Below, piece by piece: positions 20,539 through 49,930 of a DNA stretch of 52,746 nucleotides. The stretch lies in the NCBI GenBank assembly GCA_947458095.1, contig CANGYO010000001.1, positions 70,414 through 123,159 on the forward strand, read 5' to 3'. Source of the DNA: Vampirovibrionales bacterium. GTDB lineage: Bacteria > Cyanobacteriota > Vampirovibrionia > Vampirovibrionales > JAJTHC01. The notes below the pieces were generated by a model. That model made no database searches, was not told the origin of the DNA, and saw nothing but the letters and a program-made list of their open reading frames with translations. The position numbers and the translations under genes are program-made. Each line of letters begins with the position of its first letter. Position 1 is the first letter of the stretch.

Positions 20539-20679
20539 AGCGTTTTAAATAATCAACCATACTTGTCTCTTCGTTATCGCTCGGGTTCTCGATGTGCTTA
20601 TGTACGTCTCTGTACAATCACACATCTGCGAGTCTAGGCTCCTAGAATAGCCTAAGTCTGCTTAATTATTTAAAACGCT
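20539..20679 (-). repeat. 148-bp repeat family, copy C (variant ends)
   Basis: On the minus strand its core (ATTCTAGGAGCCTAGA through CACATCGAGAACCCGAGCGA) is nearly identical to copies at 35002 and 49645. The ends differ: they form their own 18-bp inverted repeat starting AGCGTTTTAAATAAT, with one mismatch. A conserved core with different but still paired ends suggests a folded structure is maintained. Confidence 0.75.
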
Positions 20680-20704
20680 AAACTCGACTATAAATAAAGA
20701 AAAA

Positions 20705-20778
20705 CACCCCGAACAAGATTCGAACTTGTGACCGTCCGCTTAGAAGGCGGATGCTCTATCCAGCTGAGCTATCGAGGC
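20705..20778 (-). tRNA. tRNA-Arg (anticodon TCT)
   Basis: All four arms can be drawn on the minus strand: acceptor GCCTCGA with TCGGGGT (two G-U pairs), D stem GCTC/GAGC, anticodon stem TCCGC/GCGGA around loop CTTCTAA (anticodon TCT at positions 34-36), variable loop CGGTC, and T stem ACAAG/CTTGT around TTCGAAT. The 3' CCA is not encoded. Confidence 0.97.
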
Positions 20779-20846
20779 ATTTTGAACCTTTTCTATATGT
20801 TTGAGTTTTCATTATTCATGCTAACATAAAAACGCAAAAGCATCAC

Positions 20847-34351: not shown

Positions 34352-34906
34352 ATGTTAAAAAAATTAGTTCCTCTCTTTATTTTGGTGGCTGTTGCCAGCA
34401 ATTCCGTTGTCGCCTTTGCTGGAGATTCATGGTCTAACACCAACTCTTCTTCCAAATGTGGCATGAGCATGAATCAAACGATTCCTGCTAAACAAGACAT
34501 CGTCGGTACCGCTTTGAATAATCCTAATTTTTCAACGTTGGTGACGGCTTTGAAAGCCGCTGGTTTGGTTGAAGCCCTTAAAGCACCTGGTCCTTACACC
34601 GTGTTTGCTCCAACGAATGCCGCATTTGCTAAATTGCCTGCTGGAACGCTTGAAAACTTGTTGAAGCCTGAAAACAAAGCTCAACTTCAAGAAGTGTTGA
34701 AGTACCATGTACTTCAAGGCAATGTGGCTTCTAAAGACATTCAACGTGGTTCTACCGAAGTCAACACCCTTCAAGGTGAAGCGGTTGAAGTAGAAAGAAA
34801 CGTTTTGGGTAACATCACTGTTGACGACGCTAAAGTCATTATCCCTGATGTCGCAACCACAAACGGTACGATTCATGCGATTGACACTGTTTTAATCCCA
34901 GAATAA
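34352..34906 (+). CDS. Secreted fasciclin (FAS1) domain protein
   Basis: 184 residues. A clear signal peptide (KK followed by LVPLFILVAVASNSVVAFA, cleavage after AFA) and one FAS1 domain (about 50-183) with its two family motifs: FTVFAPTNAAF-type (YTVFAPTNAAFAKLP, near 87-101) and the H-box YHVLQGNV, ending in the NGTIHAIDTVLIP strand. FAS1 domains mediate adhesion on cell surfaces or in extracellular matrix. The gene is monocistronic with its own promoter region and a strong downstream hairpin. Confidence 0.93.
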   Translation: MLKKLVPLFILVAVASNSVVAFAGDSWSNTNSSSKCGMSMNQTIPAKQDIVGTALNNPNFSTLVTALKAAGLVEALKAPGPYTVFAPTNAAFAKLPAGTLENLLKPENKAQLQEVLKYHVLQGNVASKDIQRGSTEVNTLQGEAVEVERNVLGNITVDDAKVIIPDVATTNGTIHAIDTVLIPE

Positions 34907-34930
34907 ACCCTTGTTTTTCAAAGAAGATTC

Positions 34931-34964
34931 AAGCATCGCCTCCTCGTGAGAGAAGGCGATGCTT
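34931..34964 (+). terminator. Hairpin after the fasciclin gene
   Basis: A perfect 11-bp stem, AAGCATCGCCT / AGGCGATGCTT, with a 12-nt loop begins 25 bp after the stop codon. The downstream tract is only weakly T-rich (CTTTATA), so it may act as terminator or 3' stabiliser. Confidence 0.6.
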
Positions 34965-35001
34965 TATAGCAGCTTATAGAAAAGGCGATAAGGGGATTGT
35001 T

Positions 35002-35149
35002 ATACCAGTTCCCAGTTTGAATAGCGTATAGGCGGATTCTAGGAGCCTAGACTCGCAGATGTGTGAGGTGTACAGAGACGTACATAAGCACATCGAGAAT
35101 CGTAGCGACAACGAAGACGTCAGACGCTATTTAAAATGGGAATTGGTAT
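35002..35149 (+). repeat. 148-bp repeat family, copy A (complete)
   Basis: Terminal inverted repeats of about 26 bp start ATACCAGTTCCCAG and end TGGGAATTGGTAT. The core can fold as a nested stem: GATTCT with AGAATC, CTC with GAG, GATGTG with CACATC, TGTAC with GTACA around loop AGAGAC, plus a local hairpin TCTAGG-AG-CCTAGA. It is nearly identical to the copy at 49645. Its right end touches the rnhB stop codon. Confidence 0.85.
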
Positions 35150-35946
35150 TACTTGAATCCGCCAATACTATAGCTGGGACGATGATAAGCCGTAAGACCT
35201 CGCTGTTTTATGGCTTGACGATGTTCTAGGGTGGCATACCCCATATTACTTGCCCAACCATACTCAGGAAAATCCATCGCCACTGAACGCACCCATTCGT
35301 CCCGATGCTCTTTGGCAACAATGGATGCCATTGCAATTAAGGCACTTTGAGCATCTCCTTTTACAATGGGGCTTTGCTGATGCGACGTAATACTGGGGAT
35401 GCGGTCTCGACCGTCCATTAAATAATGACAGCGAGAGATCGCCTCTTCTTCAAGGTGAGCAAACAACGTGTCAATCGCACGTTGCACGGCAAGCATCGAA
35501 GCCCCGATGATATTATGCTCAGCAATTTCTTCAGGCGTGGCTTGCCCAATGCCGACATGACAAAGATCTAAAATGGCTGGTAACAAAGCGTGTCGTTGCT
35601 TGGCGGTGAGTTTTTTAGAATCGTTAATGCCGACTAAAGACAGTCTCTCGTCTAAAACGCAAGACGAGTCAATGGACTTCCAACACACGGCAGATGCCAC
35701 CACATCGCCGATGAGGCTACCTCGTCCCACCTCATCACAGCCTACCAGTACAGTATTAGGGTCTAATGTTTGAGCCAATGCCTCGTCAAAAGCAAGCAGT
35801 CTCGTCAAGCGAGCTTCGGCGGATGCTTTACTAGATTTGACAAGTTCCTTACTGAGCAGGCGGGACTTCAAAGCAGAGTCCTCCCAATTGCCCTTGTCGC
35901 ACATCCACCAATAAGCGGTGGGCAGCCCGTTGAATATCGGCAACAC
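35149..35946 (-). CDS. rnhB: Ribonuclease HII
   Basis: RNase HII cuts RNA in RNA-DNA hybrids and single misincorporated ribonucleotides. The signature DEVGRG (71-76) carries two catalytic acids; further Asp residues follow in INDSKKL and YLMDGRD. The catalytic domain of about 195 residues is complete and is preceded by a helical N-terminal extension as in Bacillus RNase HII. The start is uncertain: GTG 35946 or TTG 35943 behind a G-rich site, or ATG 35904. In each case the gene overlaps the end of rbgA (35849) by 55-98 bp, suggesting coupled translation. Confidence 0.92.
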   Translation of the reverse strand: MLPIFNGLPTAYWWMCDKGNWEDSALKSRLLSKELVKSSKASAEARLTRLLAFDEALAQTLDPNTVLVGCDEVGRGSLIGDVVASAVCWKSIDSSCVLDERLSLVGINDSKKLTAKQRHALLPAILDLCHVGIGQATPEEIAEHNIIGASMLAVQRAIDTLFAHLEEEAISRCHYLMDGRDRIPSITSHQQSPIVKGDAQSALIAMASIVAKEHRDEWVRSVAMDFPEYGWASNMGYATLEHRQAIKQRGLTAYHRPSYSIGGFK

Positions 35947-36838: not shown

Positions 36839-36918
36839 CGTCATTGCGAGTGAAACGAAGCAATCTGTCCACCACTTGCGGCGTTTTTACAGATTGCCAC
36901 GCTACGCTCGCAATGACG
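36839..36918. repeat. Palindromic hairpin element H1
   Basis: An 80-bp inverted repeat with ends CGTCATTGCGAG / CTCGCAATGACG and an inner pairing between GCAATCTG and CAGATTGC. Elements of this look are widespread in intergenic regions of many bacteria. Nearly the same element is at 41395. Confidence 0.8.
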
Positions 36919-47965: not shown

Positions 47966-48277
47966 CGTTGCACAAGCAGGCGTCCAAGCACTAAATCCGA
48001 GCGGGTGAGCGAATTGCGAATCCCCGAGCGATTTTGCGGACGTCGTGGCAAGGAATGATGCGACGAGGTGGGTCAAAAGGGGGAGGATTTTCAAGGAGGG
48101 GGAAATGAGGGAGGAGAAACGCAATGCGTCCTTCCTTCCCCCTCCTTGAACCGCCTTTGGGGGTTTGGGGAGTCTTTGGCGGAGCAAAGACCCCCAAGCA
48201 CCAGCTCAACACGGAGCTAGAAATCCAAAAAAACAGGGGATTTTAAACATACCACTTCTTTAATATAAAACACTATA
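47966..48277 (+). repeat. R element, copy 2 (about 312 bp)
   Basis: Same start, stems and end as copy 1 and the same orientation. Here the central stem is a perfect 14-bp TCAAGGAGGGGGAA / TTCCCCCTCCTTGA with inner loop bases GCAATGCG. It lies between the kinase gene and the oxidoreductase gene. Confidence 0.85.
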
Positions 48278-49570: not shown

Positions 49571-49644
49571 ATGGACAAAAATGGCATGAGTAAAAGTCCA
49601 AAATGCTTCAAGATCATGACGAGCAGGATTTTATAGACGGCTTC

Positions 49645-49792
49645 ATACCAGTTCATAGTTTGAATAGCGTATAGGCGGATTCTAGGAGCCTAGACTCGCA
49701 GATGTGTGAGGTGTACAGAGACGACCATAAGCACATCGAGAACCCGAGCAACAACGAAGACGTCAGACGCTATTTAAAATGGGAACTGGTAT
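49645..49792 (+). repeat. 148-bp repeat family, copy B (complete)
   Basis: The same length and orientation as the copy at 35002, with few differences (for example GACGACCA for GACGTACA in the apical stem). Ends are ATACCAGTTC and GAACTGGTAT. It lies 140 bp upstream of an orphan gene. Confidence 0.85.
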
Positions 49793-49930
49793 CATTGCAA
49801 ATGTAACAGATGTGTCATCCCTAGCACAGAAGGTTCTTAAGATTGTTTTAATACTTATATAAGCTTAATCTCAATGCAAGATCTTTAAACCCCTCTGTTT
49901 TAACAACCCTAGTAAAGGATGAACCTCTCT

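What the first reader, a model, noticed from the sequence alone, without database searches (positions are those of the whole stretch)
35037..35104. The repeat core folds as a nested stem and may be a small RNA
In copy A GATTCT pairs with AGAATC, CTC with GAG, GATGTG with CACATC, and TGTAC with GTACA around AGAGAC; a side hairpin TCTAGG-AG-CCTAGA precedes it. Copy C keeps this core almost unchanged while its outer arms have a different sequence that still pairs (18 bp, one mismatch). Core conservation with paired but different arms is more like a selected RNA or cruciform than a decaying insertion.
Basis: partly seen in the sequence, partly recalled or inferred. Interest (0 to 1): 0.6.

Follow-up and report, generated by a model that had tools for sequence, protein, structure and literature searches.

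The report
Mobile repeats sharing one RNA-like fold
Short jumping DNA repeats, present in dozens of copies in this bacterium, carry a hairpin core whose shape is conserved across distant bacterial groups while its letters and its mobile ends keep changing, which suggests that natural selection preserves the folded form of the molecule.

Summary
Observation partly confirmed; interpretation partly supported. The three window copies belong to a 146-bp mobile palindromic (MITE-like) family in a Vampirovibrionales MAG: 47 BLAST matches in its genome, at least 150 structure-model matches, the scoring cap. Terminal repeats vary: one type has 3-bp TNA duplications and the ends of an IS630-like IS, another ANT duplications. 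The inner ~92-nt core keeps one secondary structure through real covariation: 158 double-change cells against 45 in shuffles. Arms and core exchange independently. The same architecture occurs in other Vampirovibrionia families, in Alphaproteobacteria (19 of 289 genomes), in a Deferribacteraceae MAG, and in enterobacterial RSA/ERIC-like repeats (clear to inconclusive). Three copies fill the spacer of a permuted tmRNA gene; all 12 Proteus mirabilis matches lie in rRNA operons. Best reading: an ERIC-like mobile repeat whose transcript folds into a selected, probably RNase-processed rod. An independent small RNA is not shown: no promoter, no orientation bias, no expression data.

The parts
35003..35148 (+). 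Copy A, whole element, TACC...GGTA; target duplication TTA at 35000-35002 and 35149-35151 (the second is the stop codon, read on the minus strand, of the RNase HII gene)
   Evidence: arms shared with an IS630-like IS
35030..35123 (+). Copy A structured core (model R1 match, 90.2 bits)
35068..35085 (+). Apical hairpin GTGTAC-AGAGAC-GTACAT; outer pair G35068·T35085 is the near-invariant G·U; 3x2 internal loop GAG/AA beneath it
   Evidence: G·U in 84 of 87 rows; 46 of 48
49646..49791 (+). Copy at 49645 (same arms as A); target duplication TCA at 49643-49645 and 49792-49794
49673..49766 (+). Core of that copy (72.8 bits)
20539..20679 (-). Copy B, different outer arms (AGCGTTTTAAATAATTAA / TTGATTATTTAAAACGCT); 25 bp downstream of tRNA-Arg (20704-20779, minus strand), same orientation as the tRNA
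20562..20654 (-). Core of copy B (72.6 bits)

Best explanation
These are non-autonomous mobile palindromic repeats of the ERIC/RSA kind. Resident DDE transposases move them through their terminal repeats: TNA target duplications with IS630-like ends, ANT duplications with a second kind of end (shown by sequence; transposition itself is inferred). Their inner ~92 nt encode a rod-shaped hairpin with small internal loops and a G·U-closed apex, kept by selection on the folded single strand (shown by covariation; the plus strand is favoured in Vampirovibrionales). Most likely the fold acts at RNA level: when the repeat lies in a transcript it forms a rod that is cut out or insulated by dsRNA- or hairpin-processing RNases, so insertions into transcribed spacers, and even into stable-RNA genes, are tolerated (inferred). 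Arms are replaced by those of other elements while the core stays, by recombination between copies through the conserved loop segments (inferred).
For: Copies: 47 BLAST matches; R1 matches in 10 of 18 genomes of the order. Mobility: 54 pairs of flanks with identical TAA, TTA, TCA or TGA and 25 of 34 with the ANT pattern, nested copies, IS630-like IS with the same 26-bp ends and TGA/TGA, TAA/TAA duplications. Structure. Strand. Modularity. Relatives. Transcribed places: permuted tmRNA spacer; all 12 matches of Proteus mirabilis in rRNA operons, 9 sense. Precedent for RNase processing of such repeats: Correia (RNase III) and ERIC (RNase E), passages of PMC10969869.
Against: No expression or cleavage data. 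No orientation bias towards neighbours (++ 25, -- 31 of 130). The strand preference is absent outside Vampirovibrionia: plus better in 17 of 26 listed folds of other phyla (one site listed twice), 4 of 8, and the minus strand folds slightly better in the three Gammaproteobacteria loci. Inside the core, without the apex pair, G·U 21 and A·C 15 do not differ. Rfam's weak sX9 matches are on the opposite strand. 3 of the 12 Proteus matches are antisense. Copy A sits where the RNase HII transcript would carry the minus strand.
Confidence: 0.55

Rival explanations
1. Plain DNA palindromes: the repeat is only a MITE, and its inverted symmetry is kept by transposition (ends) and by DNA-level correction of hairpins or cruciforms; no RNA role.
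For: Clear MITE features. In alphaproteobacterial and enterobacterial members both strands fold about equally well. 153 of 161 sites are not inside an ORF.
Against: Covariation in an interior that the ends do not need, conserved asymmetric internal loops, a near-invariant G·U that is an A·C mismatch on the other strand (46 of 48), and 55:11 G·U over A·C in Vampirovibrionales arms.
Confidence: 0.2
2. Single-stranded DNA hairpin recognised during replication or transposition by an enzyme that reads hairpins (HUH/Y1 type or an integrase), as for REP or attC sites.
For: Structure conserved with varying sequence and strand preference would also fit ssDNA; DNA folds are also better than shuffles.
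Against: The identified partner is a DDE_3 (IS630-like) transposase and the copies have short target duplications; the conserved part is the apex, not the ends; copies sit in spacers of stable RNAs.
Confidence: 0.12
3. A trans-acting small RNA transcribed from its own promoter and multiplied by transposition.
For: Selected single-strand structure; no orientation bias fits a self-contained unit.
Against: No promoter-like site within 34900-35300; no Rfam match at gathering score; more than 100 copies per genome are hard to reconcile with one regulator.
Confidence: 0.08

Closest known systems
ERIC/IRU (enterobacterial repetitive intergenic consensus), E. coli cusF-cusC copy L314
   Same: Intergenic imperfect palindrome; same apex type: G·U-closed hairpin GCTTAC-ATAA-GTAAGT followed by GA; R2 aligns full length at the right place and strand.
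   Different: Score only 13.5 bits, E 0.09; other ends; recalled length 127 bp against 146; recorded for Enterobacteriaceae and Vibrionaceae (PMC10969869 passages).
Enterobacterial ~150-bp repeat of Yersinia, Citrobacter, Aeromonas, E. coli pyrH-frr (probably the element called RSA; name recalled, not verified)
   Same: Apex of the GGAGCGTAC..GTACGTGAG kind with 3x2 loop and G·U; R2, trained without it, scores 19.4-27.7 bits, E 0.002 to 1e-5.
   Different: Ends CCTATCCCAGTAGGC; copy A itself has no BLAST match in the plasmid collection that holds these.
rRNA-operon inserts of Proteus mirabilis (16S-23S spacer; 23S insert about 605 nt from its 5' end, which I recall as the helix-25 intervening sequence)
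   Same: R2 matches 39.9-45.3 bits and 19.5 bits, same rod.
   Different: Confined to rRNA operons in that genome; excision of such inserts by RNase III is recalled, not tested.
Rickettsia palindromic elements (RPE)
   Same: 105-146 bp palindromes, several families, found also in tmRNA and RNase P RNA genes (PMC2229807 passages; PMC10969869 passages).
   Different: RPEs are often in frame inside proteins; here 8 of 161 sites overlap an ORF. No RPE sequence was available to score.
RUP of pneumococcus and other IS630-related MITEs
   Same: Ends shared with an IS630-type IS (PMC2229807 section 8).
   Different: RUP targets contain TA and no conserved interior function is reported there; here TNA duplications and a conserved, transferable core.

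Membership tests
MITE (non-autonomous mobile repeat) | Terminal inverted repeats and target-site duplication | tested here: met
   TNA for TACC ends, ANT for AGACC ends
MITE (non-autonomous mobile repeat) | Autonomous element with the same ends | tested here: met
   For TACC ends: 1085-bp IS with HTH and DDE_3 ORFs, L051 770-1854 and L061 615-1699; own genome has a 77% identical transposase piece, whose ends were not found in L298. Not met for AGACC ends in G002: among the 53 end sites none is paired at an IS-like spacing of 0.7-2 kb
Structured RNA family | Covariation above control | tested here: met
   the shuffles do not model phylogeny
Structured RNA family | Transcription of the element | not testable with these tools
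   Only inferred from position in a tmRNA spacer and in rRNA operons
ERIC/IRU | Sequence and structure of the ERIC consensus | tested here: inconclusive
   R2 13.5 bits, E 0.09 on one ERIC copy; same apex by eye
ERIC/IRU | ERIC length and ends | tested here: not met
   146 bp and TACC/AGACC ends here; ERIC values recalled
RPE (Rickettsia) | In-frame insertion into protein genes | tested here: not met
   8 of 161 apex sites overlap an ORF of 100 aa or more
RPE (Rickettsia) | Sequence/structure similarity to RPE | not tested
   No RPE sequence obtained; NC_007110 not held
REP/REPIN | 20-40 bp palindrome with RAYT transposase | tested here: not met
   Size 146 bp; RAYT was not searched for
Any Rfam family | Gathering-score match | tested here: not met
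   (only a tRNA in the window); below threshold V_AS5 for ERIC and sX9 for Yersinia L311

The most novel reading that the evidence does not exclude
One structured RNA module, spread over at least Vampirovibrionia, Alphaproteobacteria, Deferribacteraceae and Gammaproteobacteria, underlies ERIC/RSA-like repeats, tmRNA-spacer and rRNA-operon inserts alike: a transferable 'stealth' core that borrows the ends of unrelated transposons and survives because its transcript removes or insulates itself through RNase processing.
Probability: 0.3. Interest if true: 0.8.

Novelty: new variant of a known kind. Interest (0 to 1): 0.62.

Why it matters
ERIC-type repeats have been used for strain typing for decades, and what they do and how they move is largely open. 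A core that keeps its fold across phyla while its transposon ends change says that selection acts on the folded strand, and it gives a covariance model with which the question becomes testable: find copies in stable-RNA spacers and measure whether the RNA is cut there. It would also explain how palindromic repeats reach such numbers in small genomes without breaking them.

Tried and rejected
Orientation bias relative to genes: hinted at with 68 elements (++ 11, -- 23), gone with 130 (25, 31). Insertion exactly at stop codons: only 5 of 55, although copy A is one of them. Orientation towards tRNAs: 5 sense, 3 antisense of 8 (the apex pattern missed copy B, which is sense). Phage spread: 0 stretches in viral contigs for two patterns, 1 for a third. 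Plasmid BLAST of copy A: none. Exact apex elsewhere: 2 of 386 genomes of the phylum, 4 of 385 of the alphaproteobacterial class including the centre. attC-like recombination sites were considered because of variable sequence with conserved fold and set aside because the conserved part is the apex; not tested. Papers: all 10 searches used; listings for Vampirovibrio/Melainabacteria repeats, for MITE plus covariation and for palindromes with conserved RNA structure showed nothing on this family, which is not proof of absence.

Full report
WHERE IT IS. The window is part of a 1.66-Mb MAG (G000, 94 contigs). Its genus-mate G001 and family-mates G002 and G003 have contigs whose lengths and matches equal those of named records: Vampirovibrionales bacterium CoA8N_M69.1, Vampirovibrio sp. 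DET50b and Candidatus Melainabacteria LacPavin MAG_44_8; lineage of the order. Copy A lies between a Fasciclin gene (34352-34906, plus) and an RNase HII gene (35149-35946, minus).

THE REPEAT. BLAST of copy A finds 47 matches in G000; of 39 genomes searched as relatives 4 match: G000, G001, G002, G003. Aligning flanks shows an element TACC...GGTA with TNA duplications: of 210 candidate end pairs (many of them chance pairings of ends) 57 have identical 3-mers, 54 of them TAA, TTA, TCA or TGA. A second type, AGACC...GGTCT, has ANT duplications in 25 of 34 (12 AAT, 8 ATT, 3 ACT, 2 AGT). The TACC ends equal those of a 1085-bp IS with HTH and DDE_3 ORFs in G002 and G003. Copies nest in one another.

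MODULAR ARMS AND CORE. Against copy A, copy B has core identity 0.93 and arms 0.38 and 0.31; L087 has 0.99 and 0.28/0.27; conversely L054 has arms 0.79/0.53 and core 0.48. A further core variant replaces the middle stem by an unrelated paired stem.

STRUCTURE. Copy A folds at -66.4 kcal/mol (z -9.6) and its complement at -50.0. Folding 36 elements one by one gives in most of them the same rod with loops at the same places. Covariation was counted on three alignments. A2, 36 sequences: 91.0% of cells paired against 77.5 +- 0.9, 80 double-change cells against 26.6 +- 5.1, slid controls 4-16. A3, 92 matches from 70 of the loci held, 88 distinct: 91.6%, 191 against 64.4 +- 8.5, slid 16-23. A4, 49 matches from 36 loci, 48 distinct, cross-phylum: 93.3%, 158 against 45.2 +- 5.7, slid 17-39. 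A3 and A4 were aligned by the model and lean towards it; A2 was aligned by MAFFT, with the structure read from the folds. The apex G·U is kept in 34 of 36, 84 of 87 and 46 of 48.

STRAND. With orientation set by conserved words, the plus strand folds better in 70 of 76 elements (mean difference -8.5 kcal/mol), and the outer 26-nt arms hold 55 G·U against 11 A·C cells, 42 against 11 distinct contexts, p = 2e-5. The set of 76 was chosen from 116 inverted repeats by length 136-215 and unambiguous words. Within the core, apart from the apex pair, there is no difference (21 and 15). Outside Vampirovibrionia there is no clear strand preference.

DISTRIBUTION. In the class of a gut alphaproteobacterium, 19 of 289 at E <= 0.01, where about 3 are expected by chance; up to 13 copies per genome. 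A Deferribacteraceae MAG scores 36.7 bits. A viral-collection contig, L310, scores 37.7 bits.

LINK TO ENTEROBACTERIAL REPEATS. L310 led by BLAST to Yersinia and Aeromonas, and the Yersinia element hits 5375 of 5426 E. coli genomes, median 5 places. R2, built from A4 without any of these, scores on 7 loci: Proteus 45.2 bits, Citrobacter 27.7, Yersinia 26.2, Aeromonas 22.1 and 21.3, E. coli pyrH-frr 19.4 (apex part only), ERIC 13.5 with E 0.09. The ERIC test is inconclusive; the others are significant for the 10 kb searched. Rfam V_AS5 matches the ERIC copy at 44.5 bits, below its threshold of 96.

TRANSCRIBED PLACES. Three alphaproteobacterial copies stand in a row in the intervening segment of a permuted tmRNA gene, all sense (RF01849, 192.7 bits). 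In the Proteus mirabilis H63 record (4,077,070 bases, strict filters) R2 gives 12 matches at E <= 1, all in rRNA operons: 6 in the 16S-23S spacer 140-153 bp before 23S (sense), 3 between the spacer tRNAs (antisense), 3 inside 23S about 605 nt from its start (sense) (Rfam was run on one locus of each kind, the others were placed by short rRNA words). These are three kinds of insert copied among operons, so three events rather than twelve.

CONTEXT. 8 of 161 apex sites overlap an ORF; of 130 with both neighbours there is no orientation preference; gene ends lie within 40 bp in 60 cases and gene starts in 13. Around copy A there is no promoter-like site, and a terminator-like palindrome lies at 34931-34964.

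MECHANISM. Shown: mobility features, modular exchange, conserved fold, occurrence in transcribed spacers of stable RNAs. Inferred: that the fold acts as RNA and that RNases remove or insulate it. From print, seen as passages only: RNase III cuts Correia repeats, and ERIC at 3' ends of Yersinia genes exposes an RNase E site (PMC10969869); RPEs occur in Rickettsia tmRNA and RNase P RNA (PMC2229807). Seen as a section: RUP shares ends with an IS630 element (PMC2229807 section 8). Recalled: 23S helix-25 inserts, the name RSA, ERIC's length, the TA target of IS630.

VERDICT. A new variant of a known kind: ERIC/RSA-like MITEs, far outside the enterobacteria, with exchangeable ends and a selected core fold. 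Mechanism confidence 0.55.

Noticed in passing
L303 1272-2049: Permuted alphaproteobacterial tmRNA gene whose intervening segment holds three palindromic repeats in a row, all sense.
   Followed up: partly
L318-L329 (Proteus mirabilis H63): All 12 matches of the cross-phylum model in a 4-Mb chromosome lie in rRNA operons, including a 23S insert.
   Followed up: partly
L051 770-1854, L061 615-1699: IS630-like IS (HTH + DDE_3, two overlapping ORFs) with 3-bp TNA duplications, whereas TA is the duplication I recall for IS630.
   Followed up: partly
L130 1751-2035: A TACC-ended element of 285 bp with a different core made of long GC-rich palindromes sits inside an AGACC-ended repeat.
   Followed up: no
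L033, L120, L129, L132, L142: Genus-2 copies carry extra side hairpins inserted at the internal loops of the core.
   Followed up: no
window 36839-36918 and 48090-48150: Two unrelated palindromes (80 and 61 bp).
   Followed up: no
L270, L273, L275, L284: In gut Alphaproteobacteria two repeats with the same apex, in some cases with different stems, stand about 100-120 bp apart.
   Followed up: no
L314 359-478: Rfam V_AS5 (Vibrio antisense RNA) matches an E. coli ERIC copy at 44.5 bits, so V_AS5 may itself be an ERIC copy; Rfam sX9 matches the Yersinia repeat on the opposite strand at 40 bits.
   Followed up: no
L303 79-201: Sub-threshold match (36.4 bits) to Wolbachia sRNA WsnRNA46 close to the tmRNA gene.
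   Followed up: no
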